Below are positions 3,826 to 43,579 of a stretch of 64,000 nt of DNA, piece after piece. The translations under genes and the position numbers were made by a program. Numbering within the stretch: the stretch's first letter is position 1; the number at the start of each line of letters is the position of its first letter. The notes under the pieces are model-generated. The model saw only the letters and a program-made list of their open reading frames with translations. It made no database searches and had not been told where the DNA came from. Source of the stretch: Capnocytophaga sp. oral taxon 338 str. F0234 (GTDB taxonomy: Bacteria; Bacteroidota; Bacteroidia; Flavobacteriales; Flavobacteriaceae); contig NZ_GL872413.1 of the NCBI RefSeq assembly GCF_000192225.1, positions 163,488 to 227,487 of the forward strand, in the 5' to 3' direction.

Positions 3826-4926
3826 ATGAGAAATTATTTTCTATATTTATTCCTATTCCTTACCTGGTGGGGAAGAAGCCAAAACTTCACCTTGGATGGT
3901 AATATAAGTACTCCTTATGAAGGAAAAATTTACCTATGGTATGGAGATAAGGTGGATAGCACTACTGTTAATAATAAGGAATTCCACTTTCAAGGGAATA
4001 TTGCTTATCCTATGAAAGCCTCCCTATCAGTAAACAGAAAATTTAAGGAGACAGGCTTTTTCATCTTAGACAAAGGAGACCTTTCTTTGGATATTGCCAT
4101 TGAGAACAAACGACAAGTATACATCAAAAGTCTCAATGGAAGCCAAACCCTTAATGAGGTAAAGAACTTTCTACTCTTTAGAACTAAGAGTGCCAAAGCC
4201 GCCAATCTGCCGGAGCTACTTACCGCACGCTTAGAGCAAATTATTCGTAAAGACCCTAAAAGTCAGTTTGCAGGAATGTTACTCTCAGAACTACTTACCA
4301 ATAGGGATATTTCCTATAAACAAGCACAAAGACTATATAGCCTTCTGGACAAGAACACTCAGGATAAGGAAGATCTCCAAAGAATAGAAGTACTACTAAG
4401 TGCCATGAGTAAAACACAGGTTGGAAGTACTTTCCCCGATATTGAACTCTCTACAGAAAAGGGAACTGAAAAGCTCTCCGCTGTCAGAAAAAAACTTACC
4501 TTAGTGAATTTCACTGCCTCTGACTGTATCGCTTGTGTAGAGGCAGATCGCCAGTTTGGGAACTTATTCAAGGAATACCATCGTTCACATGGCTTTACAA
4601 TCTATTCCATATATTTAGATAATGATAGGAATACATGGATTGACCATCTCCACCGAGAAGGTATTCGCTGGACAAGTACCATCGCTCCTAGAAAGTTCAA
4701 AGAAGAAACGATACAATCCTTAGGAATTATTGATATCCCTGCGAACTTTCTCTTGGACGAACAAGGAAAGATTATCGCCGTGAATATATCTCCTAAAGGG
4801 GTACATCGTATTCTTGACCCTAAGGCTGCCGCCCTTGTACCCGTACCTAAAAAAGAAAAGAAGGGAGTAAAGAAAACATCTCCAACAAAAACATCTATTA
4901 ATAATAAAAACAGAAAGAAGAAATAA
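3826..4926 (+). CDS. Secreted DUF4369/thioredoxin-like protein
   Basis: The 366-residue protein begins with a hydrophobic signal peptide (about 1-18, ending GRSQ) and so is exported. Residues about 20-130 look like the DUF4369 beta-rich domain (FTLDGNISTPYEGKIYLWYGDKVDS). A thioredoxin/TlpA-like domain follows from about 195: TFPDIELSTEKG, then LVNFTASDCIACVEA with a CIAC redox pair (Cys234, Cys237). The domain ends near IPANFLLDEQGKIIAVN, which carries the cis-Pro region. A lysine-rich tail closes the protein. Such proteins are common in Bacteroidota and probably act on disulfides in the periplasm; the substrate is unknown. Its stop overlaps the start of the next gene by one base. Confidence 0.85.
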   Translation: MRNYFLYLFLFLTWWGRSQNFTLDGNISTPYEGKIYLWYGDKVDSTTVNNKEFHFQGNIAYPMKASLSVNRKFKETGFFILDKGDLSLDIAIENKRQVYIKSLNGSQTLNEVKNFLLFRTKSAKAANLPELLTARLEQIIRKDPKSQFAGMLLSELLTNRDISYKQAQRLYSLLDKNTQDKEDLQRIEVLLSAMSKTQVGSTFPDIELSTEKGTEKLSAVRKKLTLVNFTASDCIACVEADRQFGNLFKEYHRSHGFTIYSIYLDNDRNTWIDHLHREGIRWTSTIAPRKFKEETIQSLGIIDIPANFLLDEQGKIIAVNISPKGVHRILDPKAAALVPVPKKEKKGVKKTSPTKTSINNKNRKKK

Positions 4927-6786: not shown

Positions 6787-7872
6787 ATGGAAATTAACAA
6801 AGAGAATCGAAAATGGTTAGAGGATTTACACCTTTCCCACCCTGTTGTGATTGCAGGTCCTTGCAGTGCTGAAACACAAGAGCAAGTACTTGAAATTGCC
6901 CATGCCCTTAAGGATACTGATGTATCTTACTTCCGTGCTGGTATCTGGAAACCGCGTACACGACCAGGTATGTTCGAAGGAGTAGGTGCTTTAGGACTCC
7001 GATGGCTTCAACAAGTAAAGGAAGAAACAGGGTTAAAAACAGCGACCGAAGTAGCCAATAGAGACCATGTGAAGCTCGCCTTAGAACATGATATTGATAT
7101 GCTCTGGATAGGTGCCCGATCCACAGTAAGCCCTTTTATAGTACAAGAAATCGCTGACGCACTTAAAGGTACAGATAAGACTGTCTTAGTTAAAAATCCT
7201 GTTAATCCTGATTTGGCTCTATGGCTGGGAGCTATAGAACGACTCCTACGAGCAGACATTAAAAACCTAGGAGTTATTCATCGTGGATTCTCCACTTACG
7301 AGAAAACAAAATATAGAAATATTCCTGAATGGCAATTGGTCATTGAACTACAAAACAAGTTTCCTGACCTACCCCTGATTTGTGACCCTTCACATATTAC
7401 AGGTAAGCGAGAATTAATCTTTGACGTCTCACAAACTGCCCTTGACTTGAACTTTAATGGACTCATGATAGAGACCCATTGCACTCCAGATAAGGCATGG
7501 AGTGATGCCTCTCAACAAATTACCCCTAAGAGATTAATACAGATAATGAATGATTTACGTGTTAGGAAAACTTCTTTTGCAGAGGAAAGTTTTTCTTATC
7601 AACTCAATACCCTACGTTCCCATATTGATCTCATTGATGACCAGCTCCTTGCCCTACTAAAAAAGCGTATGCTCCTCTCCGATGAGATAGGAAAGCTCAA
7701 GAAGACCCATAACGTGGCTATCCTACAGAGTCAACGATGGTATGAAATTCTCCAAAAGGCAACTTCCGAAGGAGATCGTGATGGACTCAGCGAAGAATTC
7801 GTTATCCAAATATTTAAAGCCATCCATCAGGAGTCCATTAACCGACAGGAGAAAATAGTAAAAGAGAAATAA
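6787..7872 (+). CDS. aroF: Bifunctional DAHP synthase / chorismate mutase
   Basis: A fusion enzyme of 361 residues for aromatic amino acids. Residues 1 to about 265 form a class I beta DAHP synthase of the KDO8P-synthase-like branch: VIAGPCSAET (21-30), YFRAGIWKPRTRPG, LWIGARSTVSP, VLVKNPVNPD and LICDPSHITGKR, which carry substrate and metal ligands. It condenses PEP and erythrose 4-phosphate. Residues about 270-355 form an all-helical AroQ-type chorismate mutase (LRSHIDLIDDQLLALLKKRM), which makes prephenate. In Bacteroidota the two activities are commonly fused, probably letting prephenate feed back on the first step. The symbol is tentative, since aroA/aroG are also used for this fusion. 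Confidence 0.92.
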   Translation: MEINKENRKWLEDLHLSHPVVIAGPCSAETQEQVLEIAHALKDTDVSYFRAGIWKPRTRPGMFEGVGALGLRWLQQVKEETGLKTATEVANRDHVKLALEHDIDMLWIGARSTVSPFIVQEIADALKGTDKTVLVKNPVNPDLALWLGAIERLLRADIKNLGVIHRGFSTYEKTKYRNIPEWQLVIELQNKFPDLPLICDPSHITGKRELIFDVSQTALDLNFNGLMIETHCTPDKAWSDASQQITPKRLIQIMNDLRVRKTSFAEESFSYQLNTLRSHIDLIDDQLLALLKKRMLLSDEIGKLKKTHNVAILQSQRWYEILQKATSEGDRDGLSEEFVIQIFKAIHQESINRQEKIVKEK

Positions 7873-7935
7873 TATATAGAATTAAAAATATTCCCTTTTT
7901 CAATCTTATATTTCTAAGTTCCATAATACCTGAAT

Positions 7936-10788
7936 ATGTACCAACTTTTCTTTGATTTCTCCTTTGATCCTAATTTCCAACGATTATTACCCATTCCATA
8001 CATTGCTCAGCAAAAGAATAACCATTGGTATTTCCTCAGAAAAGCTACAGACGAAGTCCTGAAAAGCACTCCTATTCCACTAAACCCTTATAAGGAAGAA
8101 GCGCTGCTCATAGCCAATAGCCTACAACTTCCTTCTTTGTTAGAGAAATTTACTAAAAGGGAGATTTCTATACAAAAATTATACAATGATAATGATAAAA
8201 AGAAATATATACAACAACAAATAGAGGAAAAAATTTCAAAACTATTAGAAATTATTGCAACAAACCAGCTACTCCTTACGGTATCTCTTAACAAAGAACA
8301 GCCTTTGGAGAATCAATATATAGAAAATACTACAAAAGTACTCATTCCTTCTTTGGAATTTGAGAAAGTACCTGATGGCATCATCTACCGATTATCCTTG
8401 TATGATAATCAAGACAAACTATCTCCCTCTGAACATAAGATAACACTCCTTAGTTATGAAAAATCATGGATAGTTATTGATAAAAAATTAGTCAGCATTA
8501 AAGATATCAAAGCTCTTAACCTAAAGCCTTTTTTAGAGAAAACAACAGTTACTATCCCTGAAAAAATAATCCCTGAATACTTCAATAAGTTTCTTAAAGA
8601 AATTATTAAAAAGGTAGAGATTAACACCATTGGATTTGATATTATCCAGAAGAACAGTATAAAATCAGTCACTATAAAGTTTGTCCATGACTTCCTTACC
8701 CAACATTACAAGTTTTTCCTTTCTTTTGACTACGATGGATATATTTTTGGTAGTAACCAAAATAAAGGATATCATTCTAACTTAAATATTGCTTCCAATG
8801 GCACTATAACAATTGATAATTATAAAAGGAATCTCTCTGAAGAAGCCCAAAAGCATCATATTCTGGAAGCAATAGGATTTATAAATGAAGGAGGGATTTT
8901 CTTTGTAGATGATAATGACCCTTTTGCTTCTTATTTTCATCTGCTCAAGCATAAAGAAGAATTAATAGCTGCAGATTTTTTCATTGAACCTATAGAAATT
9001 CATGGTAGGAGAGTTTCTTTACAACTTCCTAAGATCCACTCCAAAGAAGCCACTAATAAAAAAGATTGGTTTGATATAGAATTATGGATAGAACAAGGCA
9101 ACGAGATATTCTCTTTTGCCAACCTTATTCAGAATATTCAGGAGAATAATCCTATATATACCCTCGCTAATGGAACACTTTTTATCATTCCTAAGGAATG
9201 GTTTGCCAAATATGAGAAACTTGCTAAATTCGGAAAAGTTAATAATGGGAAAATACAACTTCCCAAGAACAACTATGCTCTACTGAAAAATCTGCCTGAG
9301 ATAAAACCCAAATATATTTCTCCTGATATTACATATTCCCCTTCTTCTAACCTGAAAGCAACCCTACGACCTTATCAAAAAGATGGTGTTAAGTGGCTTT
9401 TAGAACATTATTACAGTGGAATGGGTGCTTGTTTAGCTGATGATATGGGATTGGGGAAAACGCTCCAGATACTTGCTCTATTGGTAGCTATCCATGATAC
9501 CTTTTCAGAAAAAGAAATAGAACAACCTTCTAACCTTTTTGAACTCGGGCAAAAACAAAAAGAACCTTTAAGAGCCCTTATTATTCTGCCATCAACTCTT
9601 CTTTTCAACTGGTATGAAGAGGTGAAACGATTCACACCACAATTCAAATGTACACAATATGTAGGAGAAGAAAGAAAAACAAAGATAAGACGACTCATAA
9701 ACTATGATATTATTTTCACTACCTATCCTATCATTACCCGAGACGCCAAGTTATTAGAAGGGTGTCTTTTCCGAATTATTATATTAGATGAAAGCCAACG
9801 GATAAAAAACAAGAATTCCCAAATTTTCAAATCCATTAATCTCCTTAAGGCAGATCATCGCTTTTCCCTCAGTGGTACCCCCATTGAGAATACACTAACC
9901 GACTTATGGTCACAAATGCAGTTTATCAACCCTAATATATTGGGAAGTTTTACAAAATTCAATAACTACTTCAGAATTGGAATTGAAAAGAAACACGATC
10001 CCATTATAATGGAAGAACTCAAAACCATTATTAGCCCTTTTCTCCTTAGACGTACTAAGGCGCAAGTATTACAGGACTTGCCTGATATGGAGGAACAAAT
10101 TGTTTATTGCCCTATGAGTGAAGAGCAAAAGAAATGGTATGAGCGTGAAAAATCAAAAGTTCGTAACAAACTCTTACATATTGACAATCATTCCCAAACC
10201 TTAAATATTCTAAATATGCTTACCCTATTGCGACAAATCAGCAACCATCCCAAGCTATTGGATAAGCAAAGCAGTATCCCCTCAGGAAAATATGAAGAGG
10301 TAATTAATCTCTTAGAGCAGCTATTGCTCTCACAACATAAAGCTCTTATTTTCAGTAGTTTTATCTCTCACTTAGAAATTTATGAAGATTGGTGTAAGAC
10401 AAATAATATTAAGTTCACTACTCTGACGGGGGACACCCCTATACCAGAGCGAAAAATACAGGTAGAGTCCTTTCAGAAGGACAAGGATATTATGTTCTTC
10501 TTTATCTCTCTCAAGGCAGGTGAAGTGGGGCTGAACCTCACCACTGCCTCATATGTACTCCTGTTAGATCCTTGGTGGAATCCTTTTGCTGAACGACAAG
10601 CTATTGCCCGTGCTCATCGCTTAGGACAGCAGCATAAAGTAACTGTCATTCGTTTTGTTACCCAGGACACTTTAGAAGAGAAAATTATTCATCTGCAACA
10701 AAACAAAAAAGAACTTTCTGAAAATATTATAGAAGAGAATGTGCTCGTTAAAGAAGTTTTAGAGAATGTAACTACTCTATTGAAATAG
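7936..10788 (+). CDS. SNF2-family helicase/ATPase
   Basis: A 950-residue SWI2/SNF2-type DNA translocase. The N-terminal half (1 to about 460) is poorly conserved in motif and resembles the SWIM-less leader of bacterial SNF2 proteins. The ATPase follows: LRPYQKDGVKWLLEHY (motif Q), DDMGLGKTLQ (Walker A, about 501-510), ILDESQRIKNK (motif II as DESQ), SLSGTPIENTLTDLW (motif III), then the C-terminal lobe with FISLKAGEVGLNLT and ARAHRLGQQHKVTVIRF (motif VI). It likely remodels protein-DNA or transcription complexes; bacterial targets are mostly unknown. It stands alone on the plus strand and shares a convergent stem-loop with the next gene. Confidence 0.9.
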   Translation: MYQLFFDFSFDPNFQRLLPIPYIAQQKNNHWYFLRKATDEVLKSTPIPLNPYKEEALLIANSLQLPSLLEKFTKREISIQKLYNDNDKKKYIQQQIEEKISKLLEIIATNQLLLTVSLNKEQPLENQYIENTTKVLIPSLEFEKVPDGIIYRLSLYDNQDKLSPSEHKITLLSYEKSWIVIDKKLVSIKDIKALNLKPFLEKTTVTIPEKIIPEYFNKFLKEIIKKVEINTIGFDIIQKNSIKSVTIKFVHDFLTQHYKFFLSFDYDGYIFGSNQNKGYHSNLNIASNGTITIDNYKRNLSEEAQKHHILEAIGFINEGGIFFVDDNDPFASYFHLLKHKEELIAADFFIEPIEIHGRRVSLQLPKIHSKEATNKKDWFDIELWIEQGNEIFSFANLIQNIQENNPIYTLANGTLFIIPKEWFAKYEKLAKFGKVNNGKIQLPKNNYALLKNLPEIKPKYISPDITYSPSSNLKATLRPYQKDGVKWLLEHYYSGMGACLADDMGLGKTLQILALLVAIHDTFSEKEIEQPSNLFELGQKQKEPLRALIILPSTLLFNWYEEVKRFTPQFKCTQYVGEERKTKIRRLINYDIIFTTYPIITRDAKLLEGCLFRIIILDESQRIKNKNSQIFKSINLLKADHRFSLSGTPIENTLTDLWSQMQFINPNILGSFTKFNNYFRIGIEKKHDPIIMEELKTIISPFLLRRTKAQVLQDLPDMEEQIVYCPMSEEQKKWYEREKSKVRNKLLHIDNHSQTLNILNMLTLLRQISNHPKLLDKQSSIPSGKYEEVINLLEQLLLSQHKALIFSSFISHLEIYEDWCKTNNIKFTTLTGDTPIPERKIQVESFQKDKDIMFFFISLKAGEVGLNLTTASYVLLLDPWWNPFAERQAIARAHRLGQQHKVTVIRFVTQDTLEEKIIHLQQNKKELSENIIEENVLVKEVLENVTTLLK

Positions 10789-36570: not shown

Positions 36571-39500
36571 TCATACCTCACCCCCTACGCCTTTGTATTT
36601 TTCTACAAAAGCTGTTATTTTGCGAAAGACAGTTTGTTTTTTGGTTCGATATTGTGGGTTTAACGGACTCATTTTAGGCAAAATGCTATTGAGGTCAGTG
36701 CCATTTTCGCTAGCGTATTCTCGTTTTAGAGAAAGCTGTATATATCGTTTAGCCGCCTCTTCATTTAAGTTTTCTTCCGCGATTAGCTCAGCCGCTTCAG
36801 CTTTTTGTCGCTCTTGGGCATAAGTGAAGAACGCTGCTATGATAGTCGGTTTGTCGTCAATAATATCTAAATTAGTTTCGTTGATAAAATCCACTATAAG
36901 GCTTTCCTTGGCACGGTTACCTATGCTGGCACGGATAATGCGACGCACTTCCTCTACTAAAGCCTCTTTGTTTTTGTTCTTTTTGTGGTGTTCTAAGATG
37001 AGTTCGAGGATATAATCGAGGTCTATTTCTTGAGATTTGAGCAAATCTACTTCAAAAACCACCTCTTCCCAGTCAATTAACTGTTTTTCTTGCGCTGCAT
37101 TCTCTCGTTCCTTGCTTACCCAATCACGTATATCGTTATAAGTGGATTTATAATCTTGCACTAATCGGTCTTTTAGTACCTCTAATTGTACCATAGAAGC
37201 GACTTGTTCTTCGGTTAGGAAATGCTCCTCGGCAAAGGCTTTTAACGCTTCAGGATCGTTTTTATCAATCGTTTGTAGCGCTTTGAGATGGGCAAACTCA
37301 TCATAGTTCTGCAAGATGTTTTCCACCTGCAAATATTCACCAAAAAGTTTTACAAAGGCTTTCTTATCGGCTGTAGTGTGAATTTCATCAGGGTCGGGGA
37401 ATTGTTCTTTTAGTTCTTTTACAATTTCGTTATAGCCTCGGCAAGCTTTACCAGTAATGATATCAGTAAAGCCCTCAAGATACTCTTGGTAGCTTTTTTC
37501 GAGGATTACATTCTTGGTGCTCTTATCGCCGAAAAGGGTAATAGCATCGATGGTAGCTTTTTCTAAATCGCGGAAAGTAACGATATTACCAAAGCTCTTA
37601 GTGCTGTTGTAGATGCGATTGGTGCGAGAATAAGCCTGCAAAAGTCCGTGATAGCGCAAGTTTTTGTCTACAAATAACGTATTGAGCATAGGGGCATCAA
37701 AACCAGTGAGGAACATACCCACTACTATCAAGAGGTCGACCTCTTGATTTTTCACACGGTTACTCAAATCGCGATAGTAGTTTTCAAACGATTTGCTTTC
37801 TAATGAAAAACTTGTTTTAAACATCGCATTATAGTCGGTAATGACTTTTTCTAAAAACTCTTTGGCACTGACGTCCATAGCAGAAGGTTCGAAAGTTTCG
37901 TCGGTAATGTCGCCTATAGCATTTTGTTCTTCATTGGCAGTATAAGAAAAGATAGTCGCTATCTTAAGCGGTCGGTCGCTATCTTTTTGCAAGGCGTTGA
38001 GCTCTTGGTAGTAGCATTTGGCAGCCTCTACACTGCTAACGGCAAACATTGCATTGAACCCCTTATTACTGCCCTCATTCCTGTGGGTTTTGAGGCGAAA
38101 ATTGCGCAAGATGTACGTAGATATTTCCCTAATACGTTCGGGGTGTAGCAAGAGGCGTTTGTTTTCGGCAACACTGAGTTTGGCTTCATCTTGCTCGGTT
38201 TCTATACCCTTAAATTGCGGACGTACATCGTTGTAATCTACTTTGAATTTCAACACTTTTTCATCGCGAATGGCATCGGTAATTACGTAGGCGTGCAGTT
38301 CGCGACCAAACACGCTGGCAGTAGTTTCGCTGCCCAAGGCATTGTCGTGGAAAATAGAGGTGCCTGTAAAACCAAATTGGTAGTACTTCTTGAATTTCTT
38401 TTTAAGGTTCTTTTGCGCTTCACCAAATTGGGAACGGTGTGCCTCATCAAAGATGAAGACAACTTGCTGGTCGTATACCGGCAAATGCTCTTCGCCCCTC
38501 ATCAGGTTATTGAGTTTTTGGATAGTAGTAACGATAATTTTATGGTCGTTCTTGTTTAAATTCTGTTTGAGTCCGGCAGTACTACCTGAGCCATTTACAC
38601 TATCGGGCGAAAAGCGTTGGTACTCCTTCATCGTTTGATAATCCAAATCTTTGCGGTCTACGACAAAGAACACTTTATCGATAAAATCGAGCTGGGTAGC
38701 CAGTTGTGCCGCTTTAAAGCTGGTAAGAGTTTTGCCCGAACCTGTAGTGTGCCATATATAACCACCCCCGTCGAGAGAGCTCCAGTGCTTAGCCTGATAG
38801 GCACTTTTTATCTTCCAGAGCAGTCGTTCGGTAGCGGCTATTTGGTAGGGGCGCATCACCAGTAGTGTGTCGCTTACATCAAGCACGGAATAGGTGAGCA
38901 GCACTTGTAACAAAGTGTTTTTCTGAAAGAAAGTAGCAGTAAAATCCTTCAGGTCTTTGATGAGCGTATTATCGGCTTTTGCCCAATTCATCGTAAAGTC
39001 GAAACTGTTTTTATTACGCTTTACGGTATTAGCAAAATAGCGGGTATCGGTACCGTTGGAAATGACAAAGAGTTGCAGGTATTTGTACAGAGAACTCTCG
39101 CTGTTGAAACTCTCTTTGCTATAGCGGTGCACTTGGTTGAACGCCTCACGGATAGCAACGCCTCGTTTTTTGAGTTCGATTTGCACTAAGGGCAACCCGT
39201 TCACTAAAATCGTTACATCATAACGATTGGCGTGAGAGCCTTTCTGTTCGAACTGGTTGATGACCTGTACTTTATTGCGAATGATATTTTTCTTATCAAC
39301 CAAATAGATATTTTGTATATGCCCATCGTCGAACACAAAGTCGTAGATATAATCGCGGTGCAGTTTGCGCGATTTTTCTACCAAGTTATCGCTGGGGGCA
39401 TCTAAATATTCCTCTACAAAGCGCGCCCATTCGGCATCGGAGAAGGTTACGCTGTTGATGTTTTGTAGCTGTGTGCGCACATTATTCAAGAGTGCTGCGG

Positions 39501-39675
39501 GGGTAGTAAGCTGTGGCAGGTATTCATAGCCTTGTTCTACCAAATCCTCTATAAATTCGCGTTCTAAAGCATTCTCGCTTTGGTAAGTAGCGGGTGCTTC
39601 ACTCACTTTAGAGAGCTTAGTATAATTGTCTAAAACGATGTAGTTTTGTGTTTCGGCGATAGTGTTGTAGGTCAT
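36571..39675 (-). CDS. hsdR: Type I restriction enzyme, R subunit
   Basis: A 1034-residue restriction and translocation subunit. The N-terminal nuclease is visible: Asp153 in [10 protein letters not shown] and IELKK with Glu167 and Lys169 (PD-ExK type). Then the SF2 motor: [12 protein letters not shown] (Walker A, 309-320), [13 protein letters not shown] (DEAH, 410-413), [30 protein letters not shown] and YSRTNRI. The C-terminal helical part binds the MTase core. It is the last gene of the hsdM-rhuM-hsdS-hsdR operon, 131 bases after hsdS; a T-run was not found after it. Confidence 0.95.
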
Positions 39676-39806: not shown

Positions 39807-40994
39807 CTACGAGGGGAACGACAATAATCTCTCCCTATAATACTCATATTGTTTTCTGCGCAGGGCAATTTCTTTGGGTAACCCCTCGCTAATAGAATTG
39901 ACTAAAGTATCGAACTTATCAAGAATAGTGGCGATACGTTGTTGCTCGGAGAGGGGAGGGAGAGGAATGGTAATCTTAGTTAAGTCATTAGCCGATATAT
40001 CTATCACTTTGGTTCCCTTAGCGTACTTTCTTTTTTGGTTTGAAAACTCTGTTGTCTGCGTATAATAAACCAAATATTTACCTATGATTTTTTCTGAAGG
40101 TTTAAAAATGGTAGCGTGTCCTCCTGTTACACCTTGTTCTTTAACACAATAGGCAACAGCTTTCCCTACGTCATCTATATTCTCACTTGTATTTGTTATT
40201 ATCACGTCTCCATAATCTACTTTTCTAAGTCCTTCAGCTGTTTCACGAGATACAAAAGAAATTGTTTGTTCCACAGAAATCCCATAGTAAGTATAAATTT
40301 GACCATAATGGATAGCAGGAACACCACTTGTTATGAGGTCTTTCTTCTGCAAACCATTGCCCCGTATAAAAGTGCCTACTTCTCCTAGCGTTTTCCAAAC
40401 TATCTCAGTACCCCCCCCTATCTCATTGAAAGTCAATAATTTATTTCGGTAGTATTCATACTGCCGCTTGCGGCAGTCCAGCTCCGCCTCCAGCTGGGTG
40501 AACTTGTCCAGAATACGAACAATCTCTTGCTGGACAGAAAGAGGGGGAAGGGGGATTTTTTTATTAGCATAGTTACTAATCCATTGTCGTTTATGATCAC
40601 CTTCTATAAGTTCACTTGGTAAAGTGTTTAGCCAATAATAAATATACTTCAACAATACTTCTTTCTCATTTTTAGAGGTTATCATCTTCATTGCTGATGA
40701 TTTGGCTTTGAAGTCGAAATCTACCCATTTGTTAGCTGTTGTAAAATCGTCAAAAATTATAACAGGGCTTATAGAAGCCTTATAAATACCTTCTGTTTCA
40801 TCTGTATAACCAAGAATAAATGTTTTACCAGCAGTTAATACAGGAGTAGGATATATATCCTTATAATTACTTGACTTTACTAGATATTTTGTTGGCTGTT
40901 CATATTCCGCTATCTCTCCCAGAGGTTTCCATACTACTTCAGCGCCTTGCAGGAGATGTTCTATATAAGGGAATATTTTTGGTTCTTGTGTCAT
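39807..40994 (-). CDS. hsdS: Type I restriction enzyme, S (specificity) subunit, phase-variable
   Basis: A 395-residue protein with two target-recognition domains. TRD1 (about 22-150) and its spacer helix (about 155-188, ending RKRQYEYYRNKLLTFN) are followed by TRD2 (about 198-345) and a second spacer (about 350-390, RRKQYEYYRERLLSFP). The two halves are built as a repeat: EVVWKPLGEI and EIVWKTLGEV begin them. Between them residues 193-195 are Gly-Gly-Gly, encoded by an unbroken G8 run (40411-40418). The second half has no Met. It is in frame here, so this genome is in the full-length state. Confidence 0.95.
   Translation of the reverse strand: MTQEPKIFPYIEHLLQGAEVVWKPLGEIAEYEQPTKYLVKSSNYKDIYPTPVLTAGKTFILGYTDETEGIYKASISPVIIFDDFTTANKWVDFDFKAKSSAMKMITSKNEKEVLLKYIYYWLNTLPSELIEGDHKRQWISNYANKKIPLPPLSVQQEIVRILDKFTQLEAELDCRKRQYEYYRNKLLTFNEIGGGTEIVWKTLGEVGTFIRGNGLQKKDLITSGVPAIHYGQIYTYYGISVEQTISFVSRETAEGLRKVDYGDVIITNTSENIDDVGKAVAYCVKEQGVTGGHATIFKPSEKIIGKYLVYYTQTTEFSNQKRKYAKGTKVIDISANDLTKITIPLPPLSEQQRIATILDKFDTLVNSISEGLPKEIALRRKQYEYYRERLLSFPS
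40411..40418 (-). repeat. Homopolymer G8 tract inside hsdS (phase-variation site)
   Basis: Eight consecutive C on the plus strand, G on the coding strand, code Gly193-Gly195 at the joint of the two TRDs. With nine G the frame reads three Gly, Tyr, then TGA (196 residues). With seven G it reads Gly-Gly-Val-Leu-Arg, then TAG (197 residues). Either change leaves TRD1 plus one spacer. No comparable G/C run was noticed elsewhere in the window. Confidence 0.85.
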
Positions 40995-40996
40995 TG

Positions 40997-42022
40997 TTAT
41001 TTGTGTTTTGTTTTCAATAGCTTAGCTGTGTTTTTCTCCAATGCTTTTAAACTCTCTAAATAGGATTGTTCTATAGGCGATAGTGTGCGGGCTTCATAAG
41101 CTCGGTATTCTTGTATTGCTTTCTGCTCCGCCTGTTCGTGGCTAATAGTCCCTGCTCCTTTCAATACTCCTTTGCCGTAATTGGCTGAAAATTTATCCAA
41201 TTCATCCACCCAATCTTGCATATACATAGGGCTTTGTGTTTGCGCTTTAAGCTCTGCCAGATCAAAGAAGGCAGAAACAAGACGGTTTAAGCGGAATAGT
41301 TCTTCTTCTGTAAGATAATTCTTGGCTATTTTAGCCTCGTTTAGGGTAGGCAAAGCTCCTTTAAAAGTTGTAAGCCCCATAAAATCTTTAGTACTATCTG
41401 CTCTGCGATAGATCAGTTCAGCTGATGTTTGCTCGCTACAGGCATAATGCAGTTTGTTTTGTACTATTTTAAAAAAAGTAAGGGTTATTTCACTTTTAGG
41501 GTTGTAATCCCTACTGGTAGCATACAAATCGAGCACTTGTCGGTATAGCGCTTTTTCACTTGAGCGGATATCTCGTATTCTATTGAGGAGTTCTTTCCAA
41601 TAATTTCCGCCTCCATTGCCTTTTAGGCGCTCATCATCCATCGTAAAACCTTTTACAATGTATTCTTTTAATCTCTCAGTAGCCCATTGCCTAAAGCGTG
41701 TTCCTTGTACAGAACGAACACGATAACCCACAGAAATAACAACCTCTAAATTGTAATATTTTACTTCTCTTTCTTGAGTTTTTCCTTCTATAGCGCCGTG
41801 TTGAGTGGTATGTCGGAATTTCCGACATACCACTTTTTCATCCAATTCTCCTTCCTCAAAAATATGAGAGATATGCTCTGTTATAGTGGTGCGTCCCTTT
41901 CCAAACAATGTGGCCATCTGTTCTTGTGTGAGCCAAACAGTCTCCCCCTCTACCCTTACATCTATTTGTACAGCACCATCTTCACGCTGATAAAGTATGA
42001 TTTCTTCTTTTTGCGCTTCCAT
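40997..42022 (-). CDS. rhuM: RhuM-family protein
   Basis: A 341-residue protein starting MEAQKEEIILYQREDGAVQIDVRVEGETVWLTQEQMATLFGKGRTTITEHI, the typical RhuM/DNA-binding-like opening, with VVISVGYRVRSVQGTRFRQWATERL and a C-terminal Fic-adjacent-like helical region. RhuM genes are often found inside type I restriction operons and in islands; the name comes from a Salmonella virulence region gene. A regulatory or accessory role is likely but not known. It lies 2 bases before hsdS and 9 after hsdM. ATG 42022 was preferred over TTG 42031. Confidence 0.85.
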   Translation of the reverse strand: MEAQKEEIILYQREDGAVQIDVRVEGETVWLTQEQMATLFGKGRTTITEHISHIFEEGELDEKVVCRKFRHTTQHGAIEGKTQEREVKYYNLEVVISVGYRVRSVQGTRFRQWATERLKEYIVKGFTMDDERLKGNGGGNYWKELLNRIRDIRSSEKALYRQVLDLYATSRDYNPKSEITLTFFKIVQNKLHYACSEQTSAELIYRRADSTKDFMGLTTFKGALPTLNEAKIAKNYLTEEELFRLNRLVSAFFDLAELKAQTQSPMYMQDWVDELDKFSANYGKGVLKGAGTISHEQAEQKAIQEYRAYEARTLSPIEQSYLESLKALEKNTAKLLKTKHK

Positions 42023-42031
42023 ATTTATCAA

Positions 42032-43579
42032 TTAGTTTTCTATTTCTCTAATAATCTCCTCTATATCCGCCCTCAGCTCATTAATACGTATGATGGTTTG
42101 CGCTACTTCGGCGTTGAGTTGCTGAATATCTATCACCTCACGGGTGTCTTTTGCTTCTACATACGAACTAACGGATAGGTTGTAGTCATTTTCGGCTATC
42201 TGCTGGTTGTCTACTTGCACAGCGGTGTGAGGTACCGCCTCTTTGTCGGCAAAAATGCTAACGATATGCGCTATATGGTCATCAGTAAGTACGTTGTTAT
42301 TAGTTTCTTTCTTAAAAAAGTCCTCACCACTGGCATCTATAAATTGGGTTTGGGTATCGGGTTTGTGTTTGGAAAGTACCAATATATTAACCGCAATGCT
42401 GGTGCCATAGAAGAGGTTGGGCGGTAGGGCGATAACAGTTTCTACATAGTTGTTATCAATGAGGTATTTGCGTATTTTCTGCTCGGCACCTCCGCGGTAA
42501 AAGATACCAGGGAAACACACAATAGCGGCACGCCCCTTAGCCGAAAGGTAGCTGAGGGAATGCAATACAAAGGCAAAGTCGGCTTTAGATTTTGGGGCTA
42601 ATACGCCTGCTGGCGCAAAACGGTCGTCGTTGATAAGGGTAGGGTCGTCGCTACCTATCCAGTTCACCGAATAAGGAGGATTGGAAACGATGGCATCAAA
42701 AGGTTTTTCATCGCCAAAGCAGGGGTTTATGAGCGTATCGCCTAATGCAATATTGAACTTGTCATAGTTGATATTGTGCAAGAACATATTCATACGCACC
42801 AAGTTGTAGGTAGTATGATTGATTTCTTGCCCAAAAAAACCTTCTTCTATCTGGTAGTCATCGAAGTGTTTTTTAGCTTGTAGTAGGAGAGAGCCTGACC
42901 CACAAGCAGGGTCGTAAATCTTGTTTACTGATGATTGCCCCAACAAAGCCAATTGCGCAATGAGTTTTGATACATTCTGAGGGGTAAAAAACTCCCCACC
43001 CGATTTGCCTGCATTGGCAGCATAGTTAGAGATGAGGAACTCATAAGCATCGCCAAAGAGGTCAATTTGGTGGTTTTCAAAATCGCCAAAACTAAGCCCT
43101 GCCACTCCGTTAACTACCGCGGCGAGGCGTTTGTTTTTTTCCTCAACGGTATTGCCAAGGCGGTTGGAGGTAGTGTCGAAGTCGGCAAACAGTCCTTTAA
43201 TATCGGCTTCGGACGGGTAGCCATTGGCGGAACTTTCGATAGCCGAGAAGATAGCTGCTAAATCGGTATTGAGATTGGAATTGGTATTCGCATTTTTAGC
43301 TACATTTACAAACAGCTGAGAGGGGTAGATAAAATAACCCTTAGTTTTCGTAGCATCGTCTTTTATTTCAGGGGTAATAGCCTCATCGGGCAGCTCGGCG
43401 TACTGCACACTCTCATCGCCACCTTCGATGAAATTAGTAAAATTCTCGCTGATAAAACGATAGAAAAGGGTACCTAAAACAAATTGTTTAAAATCCCAAC
43501 CATCTACCGCGCCGCGTACTTCATTGGCTATCTTCCAAATAGCGGCTTGTAATTCTTCTCTTTGCTTGATACTTGTCAT
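42032..43579 (-). CDS. hsdM: Type I restriction enzyme, M (methyltransferase) subunit
   Basis: A 515-residue N6-adenine methyltransferase. The N-terminal HsdM helical domain (1 to about 150) precedes the SAM-binding motif [12 protein letters not shown] (223-234) and the catalytic NPPY (300-303, in SNPPYSVNW). A C-terminal coiled coil (about 485-512) should contact HsdS. It begins the operon. The operon uses more GCG, CGC and GGC codons than its neighbours by eye, which suggests acquisition by transfer. Confidence 0.95.

What the first reader, a model, noticed from the sequence alone, without database searches (positions are those of the whole stretch)
40411..40418. G8 run at the joint of the two DNA-recognition halves of hsdS: a probable specificity switch
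The only long G/C run noticed lies exactly between TRD1 and TRD2 (Gly193-195). Plus one G gives a TGA after 196 residues and minus one G gives TAG after 197, so the tract is backed by stops in both other frames. The second half contains no Met, so it cannot restart at ATG. The short form keeps TRD1 and one conserved spacer helix. In the gonococcal NgoAV system a G run at the same place makes a half-size HsdS that works as a dimer with a new target, so this system may likewise change target rather than just turn off.
Basis: partly seen in the sequence, partly recalled or inferred. Interest (0 to 1): 0.85.

Follow-up and report, generated by a model that had tools for sequence, protein, structure and literature searches.

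The report
Repeat-driven target switch in restriction enzyme
A run of eight G's between the two DNA-reading halves of a bacterial restriction enzyme's targeting subunit looks like a slippery joint that can drop the second half and so change which DNA is marked, and unrelated repeats sit at the same joint in relatives of this gene.

Summary
The G8 is real (40411-40418, C8 on +): codons 193-195 of a 395-aa HsdS, in the linker between the central helix and TRD2. One base more or less gives a clean 196- or 197-aa half-HsdS. The system is type IC (EcoR124-like) with open hsdM and hsdR, in Capnocytophaga. A G8 alone is weak evidence: about six are expected in this genome by composition, ten exist, six of them in long open frames of other genes. 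Recurrence carries the case. In HsdS relatives exact repeats (mostly G tracts, also C, AG, tetra- and heptanucleotides) fall just behind the helix 23 times in 24,774 bases against 3 in 119,406 control bases; 22 of 23 units shift the frame. Of 27 listed joint repeats 24 can be read on: 14 in frame, 10 out of frame, all with a long open frame behind. In 10 of 14 G tracts both other frames stop within 4 codons, against 9 of 81 ordinary joints. TRD1 is 78% identical to EcoR124II's; the half-HsdS of its sister EcoR124I works as a dimer on GAAN7TTC, the predicted target of the short form. Length variation in this species, and activity of the short form, are not shown. Some relatives carry three- or four-module HsdS chains with repeats at the joints.

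The parts
40411..40418 (-). G8 tract (C8 on +), codons 193-195 of hsdS, the proposed switch
39807..40994 (-). hsdS, 395 aa, type IC specificity subunit
   Evidence: PF01420 two stretches; EcoR124II HsdS 7bst_A E=3e-113
40545..40937 (-). TRD1, residues 20-150 (boundaries chosen by me)
   Evidence: 102/131 identical to EcoR124II
40431..40541 (-). central conserved helix, residues 152-188
   Evidence: predicted structure; 28/41 identical to EcoR124II over residues 151-192
40405..40407 (-). TGA that ends the +1 frame (196 aa)
40400..40402 (-). TAG that ends the -1 frame (197 aa)
39960..40382 (-). TRD2, residues 205-345 (boundaries chosen by me); lost in the short forms
   Evidence: 28/134 identical to EcoR124II
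39822..39953 (-). distal conserved helix, residues 348-391
   Evidence: predicted structure; 36/49 identical over residues 346-394
42032..43579 (-). hsdM, 515 aa
   Evidence: TIGR00497 7e-194
36571..39675 (-). hsdR, 1034 aa
   Evidence: TIGR00348 1e-201, EcoR124_C 7e-69
40997..42031 (-). RhuM-family gene between hsdM and hsdS
   Evidence: PF13310 3e-104

Best explanation
The G8 is a slipped-strand target switch of the NgoAV kind. With 8 G (the state in this genome) one HsdS chain carries TRD1 and TRD2 and, with two HsdM, should methylate an asymmetric bipartite site. Gain or loss of one G ends the chain just behind the central helix (shown by translation). Two such half-HsdS chains then pair through that helix and with two HsdM methylate a palindrome of the TRD1 half-site (inferred from EcoR124I and NgoAV). 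TRD1 is 78% identical to EcoR124II's and the helix has EcoR124I's length, so the predicted palindrome is GAAN7TTC. The switch would thus change the target instead of turning the system off. Shown: frames, stops, homology, recurrence of joint repeats. Inferred: slippage in this species, dimer formation, both targets.
For: Type IC HsdS (E=3e-113); TRD1 102/131 and central helix 28/41 identical to EcoR124II, one four-residue repeat shorter. Tract in a linker of pLDDT under 50 between helix 152-188 and the strand from 199. Position: 10 G runs of 8-10 in 13,002 joint bases, none of 7 or more in 85,362 control bases, while A runs are equally dense in both, 10 and 68; all repeat kinds 23 in 24,774 against 3 in 119,406 bases, 22 of 23 with a unit not divisible by three. 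State: of 24 readable joint repeats 14 in frame and 10 out of frame, each with 177-391 open codons behind and a second helix motif found in 21 of 24. Stops within 4 codons in both other frames in 10 of 14 G tracts against 9 of 81 joints without tract, p=6e-6. Two more hsdS of the genus have G10 at the joint, out of frame. Precedents: EcoR124I N-terminal half on GAAN7TTC (PMC3320862 abstract and passages; PMC3874165 section 26); NgoAV (PMC9577141 passages; PMC6789123 passages).
Against: No second genome of this species was found, so tract variation is unseen. Eight G is short, and six of the nine other runs of 8 or more in this genome lie in long open frames of other genes. The closest relative in the genus, C. 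catalasegens (59%), has no tract. Most relatives have none: 4 of the best 80 do. EcoR124I's active half spans residues 1-215 and the delta-50 mutant lost only about 160 residues, so both are longer than the 196-197 residues here; only NgoAV's 208-of-410 half ends at its tract. A change of target with an active HsdR is dangerous to the cell until new sites are methylated (general knowledge). 47% of 92 gonococcal ngoAV loci were judged to make no active enzyme.
Confidence: 0.6

Rival explanations
1. Phase variation is real but a plain on/off switch: the short form is unstable or inactive, so the system falls silent with 7 or 9 G.
For: The short form is 10-50 residues shorter than the published active EcoR124I halves. 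A TRD1-only construct of the H. pylori HsdS JHP1422 did not methylate its palindrome while TRD3 alone did (PMC3936762 passages).
Against: The short form keeps TRD1 and the whole helix. A plain off switch needs no special place in the gene, yet repeats cluster at the joint and not in the rest of the gene upstream. NgoAV's half is active.
Confidence: 0.2
2. The tract is inert: a chance run in a tolerant glycine linker, fixed at 8 G, that slips too rarely to matter.
For: Runs of this length are expected by composition (6.3 per genome) and occur in long open frames of other genes. The linker differs in length between relatives.
Against: Clustering of unlike frame-shifting repeats at this joint and the out-of-frame cases; stops close behind in both other frames. 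These concern the kind, not this gene's slippage.
Confidence: 0.16
3. The run length is a sequencing or assembly error.
For: Homopolymers are error-prone; one relative's contig ends in G50 at this joint (L245), probably an artefact.
Against: With 8 G the 395-aa frame is whole and matches EcoR124II from residue 9 to 394.
Confidence: 0.04

Closest known systems
NgoAV, phase-variable type IC system of Neisseria gonorrhoeae
   Same: Type IC HsdS; G tract at the end of the first TRD module; one base decides between a half of about 200 residues and a full HsdS; four-residue repeats in the central helix region.
   Different: In gonococcus FA1090 the half form (7 G) is the resident one and the full form comes by loss of one G; here 8 G gives the full form. 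Variation and both targets are measured there, not here. The TRDs differ; a RhuM-family gene lies between hsdM and hsdS here.
EcoR124I / EcoR124II
   Same: Closest solved relative of HsdS; TRD1 78% identical, helices 68 and 73%; an engineered N-terminal half works as a dimer on GAAN7TTC.
   Different: No G tract at the joint; known natural variation is in the number of TAEL repeats in the helix; TRD2 only 21% identical.
Helicobacter pylori one-TRD and three-TRD HsdS (JHP0785, JHP1422)
   Same: Show that HsdS with one or three TRDs can be active, the latter on two sites (PMC3936762 passages).
   Different: No joint repeat is described for them in the passages I saw.
Inverting hsdS loci (SpnIII and others)
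   Same: Reversible change of type I target (PMC7394358 passages).
   Different: They need a second hsdS with inverted repeats; this genome has no other PF01420 match.

Membership tests
NgoAV-type phase-variable HsdS | type IC specificity subunit with two TRDs | tested here: met
   two PF01420 stretches, EcoR124II E=3e-113
NgoAV-type phase-variable HsdS | homopolymeric G tract at the joint of the two TRD modules | tested here: met
NgoAV-type phase-variable HsdS | one-base change gives a half of about 200 residues with TRD1 and the central helix | tested here: met
   196 and 197 residues; helix ends at 188
NgoAV-type phase-variable HsdS | hsdM and hsdR present and open | tested here: met
NgoAV-type phase-variable HsdS | tract length varies between cells or strains | not testable with these tools
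   one genome per species, no reads; other species show both frames at this joint
NgoAV-type phase-variable HsdS | half form methylates a palindrome, full form another site | not testable with these tools
   needs methylome data
Inverting hsdS locus | second hsdS copy as recombination partner | tested here: not met
   both PF01420 matches of the genome lie in this one gene
On/off phase-variable methyltransferase | out-of-frame form is inactive | not testable with these tools
   the short form keeps one TRD and one helix; its activity is unknown

The most novel reading that the evidence does not exclude
The joint between HsdS modules is a repeatedly evolved coupler: frame-shifting repeats of unrelated sequence decide how many TRD modules are joined in one chain. 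In the window the choice is one or two modules. In two genomes of the same family and in several viral-contig records there are three or four modules with repeats at the joints (G9-G9-G8 in L215; G8 and G9 in L216; AG, ACAG or ACGAACA behind the second module in L292, L298, L274), so that slippage would add or remove whole targets instead of switching the enzyme on and off.
Probability: 0.5. Interest if true: 0.75.

Novelty: new member of a known kind. Interest (0 to 1): 0.55.

Why it matters
NgoAV is the worked example of a type I enzyme that changes target by slippage of one base. If the HsdS joint is a recurrent repeat hotspot, such switching is not a gonococcal oddity, half-HsdS enzymes are ordinary products of evolution, and repeat-bearing hsdS genes should be assigned pairs or sets of motifs instead of one. 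For this gene the prediction is exact and cheap to test: GAAN7TTC in cells with 7 or 9 G.

Tried and rejected
Inverting hsdS locus: rejected, no other PF01420 match in the genome. Chance as the account of the joint position: rejected for the kind, although chance can explain that a G8 exists. C runs in hsdS outside the joint were not counted as joint repeats: L093 C7, L074 C7 in the coding strand just behind a first TRD match, and the three controls, 127-140 nt before the motif end; those whose letters I looked at encode the Pro-Pro motif before the helix (L176/L215, L236, L093), L212 was not looked at.

Plasmid records were searched for further alleles: 1,088 records hold relatives, 40 were listed, none of those above 52% identity; none was read further. 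Viral contigs gave more joint repeats; for L205 and L206 searches found only the same records again, so no second allele of one gene. No paper of the held library names Capnocytophaga with both phase variation and restriction-modification or with slipped-strand mispairing. The model was not compared with PDB folds, because the sequence match to EcoR124II was decisive.

Limits of the counts: the helix motif misses most other hsdS kinds of the genus (4 ends in 20 regions), so the two G10 genes there are not. One search includes loci fetched with repeat-bearing queries, which raises the frequency of repeats, not their place. The tree label marks G tracts known then; L214 (G9 at a contig end) and the rows with other repeats (L202, L209, L210, L213) stand as without. 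Motif ends include C-terminal ends of genes, where no second module follows.

Full report
What is there. The C8 at 40411-40418 is G8 on the coding strand of a 395-aa hsdS (39807-40994, minus), codons 193-195. It is the only G or C run of seven or more in the window. One G more ends the protein after 196 residues, one less after 197. The operon reads hsdM (42032-43579), a RhuM-family gene (40997-42031), hsdS, hsdR (36571-39675), each an open frame. The genome has no other PF01420 match. The genus is Capnocytophaga: G004, placed in the window's genus, has a contig with the length (71,175) and the hsdS place of C. catalasegens record NZ_BPMA01000031.

Chance. The window's composition predicts 0.16 runs of eight or more in 64 kb and 6.3 in the genome; the genome has ten. 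Of the nine others, six lie in long open frames (L032-L037; by my own reading of the letters, no call named them, UvrA, a serine dehydratase and a 5'-nucleotidase are among them), one lies in no frame of 60 aa or more (L028, a G9), one locus was partly masked, one gave no locus. A run of eight is therefore no proof of switching.

Family. HsdS matches EcoR124II HsdS (PDB 7bst_A) at E = 3e-113 over residues 9-394. Counted on that alignment, with boundaries chosen by me, TRD1 is 102/131 identical, the central helix 28/41, TRD2 28/134, the distal helix 36/49. The window lacks one four-residue helix repeat that EcoR124II has and so has EcoR124I's helix length; EcoR124I reads GAAN6RTCG (PMC3874165 passages). 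At the joint the window has four extra residues, which hold the tract. A model from 25 sequences (mean pLDDT 81, pTM 0.56) has the helix at 152-188, pLDDT under 50 at 192-194 and the next strand from 199. A stop at 196-197 thus leaves TRD1 and a whole helix.

Relatives. One scan of species genomes gave 473 relatives, of which the best 80 were kept. Four of the 80 carry G9 at the joint, all in frame: L086 (Weeksellaceae MAG), L087 and L089 (Flavobacterium MAGs), L155 (Pasteurella atlantica). L120 has GGGTGGGGG at the same place, a tract with one substitution. Many others have a short acidic joint such as FEDGEVEWK. In the genus 14 of 20 genomes have PF01420 matches. I read 20 regions from 12 of them besides the window: two carry G10 between their TRDs, both out of frame, in hsdS genes of other kinds: L067 (G004) and L070 (G019, an S region joined to M). 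The closest relative in the genus, L004/L108, has no tract. In a search of 397 genomes of the family, 2 of 29 new loci read carry tracts, in G234 and G393. Of 20 viral-contig loci seven carry joint repeats: L202, L205, L206, L209, L210, L213, L214.

Position test. At 197 ends of the helix motif in the loci, ten G runs of 8-10 lie in the next 66 nt (13,002 bases), and none of seven or more in 85,362 bases upstream in the same genes. A runs of seven or more are equally dense in both, 10 and 68. Over all loci held at that time except those fetched by the run-of-G pattern, exact repeats of unit 1-9 (A and T homopolymers left out) number 23 within 90 nt behind 276 distinct motif ends (24,774 bases) and 3 in 119,406 control bases; 22 of the 23 have a unit length not divisible by three. 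The exception, L112, lies behind the last helix of its gene. The units are G, C, AG, AAGC, CAAG, GCAA, GACA, ACAG and ACGAACA. Some of these loci were fetched with repeat-bearing queries, so the frequency is inflated, not the place.

State test. I listed 27 joint repeats: those without L112, some re-read in fuller regions, plus L067, L070, L214, L223 and the first tract of L216. Three run into a contig end (L214, L245, L295). Of the other 24, 14 are in frame with what follows and 10 are not; all 24 have 177-391 open codons behind, and 21 show the second helix motif (not L205, cut by its contig end, nor L067 and L070, which have other helix sequences). The upstream frame is short in L223 (33 codons, near the locus end) and L216's first tract (81 codons, see below). 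Long open halves behind out-of-frame joints argue that they are used in other cells. Behind 14 G tracts both other frames stop within 4 codons in 10 (window, L086, L087, L089, L206, two of L215, one of L216, L067, L070); in the other four the later stop comes after 6, 10, 13 and 55 codons. Of 81 joints without tract 9 stop so early. Fisher p = 6e-6, or 8e-5 with L086, L087 and L089 counted once.

Origin. On a quick tree of HsdM from the window and 100 of 133 loci searched, the nine rows with joint G tracts need eight changes, seven forced by well supported branches, no more clustered than shuffled labels (116 of 500 shuffles as low). Joint sequences around the tracts differ, except for the L086/L087/L089/L120 set. 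So the tract was gained, lost or moved with hsdS many times.

Mechanism. The N-terminal half of EcoR124I (residues 1-215) dimerises, recognises GAAN7TTC and is active as methyltransferase and, with HsdR, as nuclease (PMC3320862, abstract and passages). The mutant HsdS delta-50 and a truncated EcoDXXI behave alike; no such homodimers were reported outside type IC at that date (PMC3874165 section 26). In gonococcus FA1090 the NgoAV hsdS is a 208-aa half because of a G tract, and loss of one G fuses the halves and changes the target (PMC9577141 passages; PMC6789123 passages); of 92 strains 60 have 7 G, 15 have 6, 7 have 8 and 10 have 9, and 43 loci were judged inactive. The same reading for the window gives an asymmetric site with GAA in the 8-G state and GAAN7TTC in the 7- and 9-G states. 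Shown: frames, stops, homology, recurrence. Inferred: slippage in this species, dimer formation, both targets.

Beyond the window. L215 (G234) is a chain of four HsdS modules joined by G9, G9 (in frame) and G8 (out of frame) between open hsdM and hsdR; L216 (G393) has three with G8 and G9, both out of frame, and a further frameshift inside its first module. Viral-contig records L292, L298 and L274 have two modules, then (AG)16, (ACAG)15 or (ACGAACA)6, then a third module, in frame only in L292; L295 has (ACAG)14 at its contig end. A three-TRD HsdS of H. pylori is active on two sites (PMC3936762 passages). Among the titles and abstract openings listed I saw no report of repeat-coupled HsdS modules beyond NgoAV. 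The survey most likely to hold them (Atack et al. 2020, FASEB J; by PMC7394358, passages, it found repeats in 7.9% of hsdS) is not in the library, so they may already be described.

Verdict. The target-switch reading is the best one and fits a recurrent kind; for this gene both the variation and the activity of the short form remain to be measured.

Noticed in passing
L215 (G234:C5:106000-122000), minus strand: HsdS gene of four TRD modules in a row with G9, G9 and G8 at the three joints, the last out of frame, between open hsdM and hsdR; a C9 also lies at the Pro-Pro motif of the first module.
   Followed up: partly
L216 (G393:C56:10000-26000), + 7458-9216: Three HsdS modules with G8 and G9 at the joints, both out of frame, and another frameshift inside the first module.
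   Followed up: partly
L292 3182-3213, L298 3198-3257, L274 3195-3236, L295 3138-3193: Two-module HsdS followed by an AG, ACAG or ACGAACA repeat and (not L295, contig end) a third module; slippage would add or remove a third TRD.
   Followed up: partly
L223, L224/L253, L240/L254 (G657, G645, G677, one genus): C9-C12 instead of G tracts at the HsdS joint; two of three out of frame.
   Followed up: partly
L120, joint of hsdS: GGGTGGGGG at the place where close relatives have G9: looks like a tract locked by one substitution.
   Followed up: no
L245 (G570:C10), contig end: A contig ends in G50 at the HsdS joint, probably an assembly artefact at a long tract.
   Followed up: no
L215, minus strand 4300-4311: G12 inside another open frame of the same island (313 aa, 10875-11813 of L215), a possible further switch.
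   Followed up: no
window 40997-42031: A RhuM-family gene lies between hsdM and hsdS, two bases from hsdS; its role in the system is unknown.
   Followed up: no
G002, G008, G009, G012 (window's genus): hsdS matches in opposite orientation side by side, the layout of inverting hsdS loci; invertibility was not tested.
   Followed up: no
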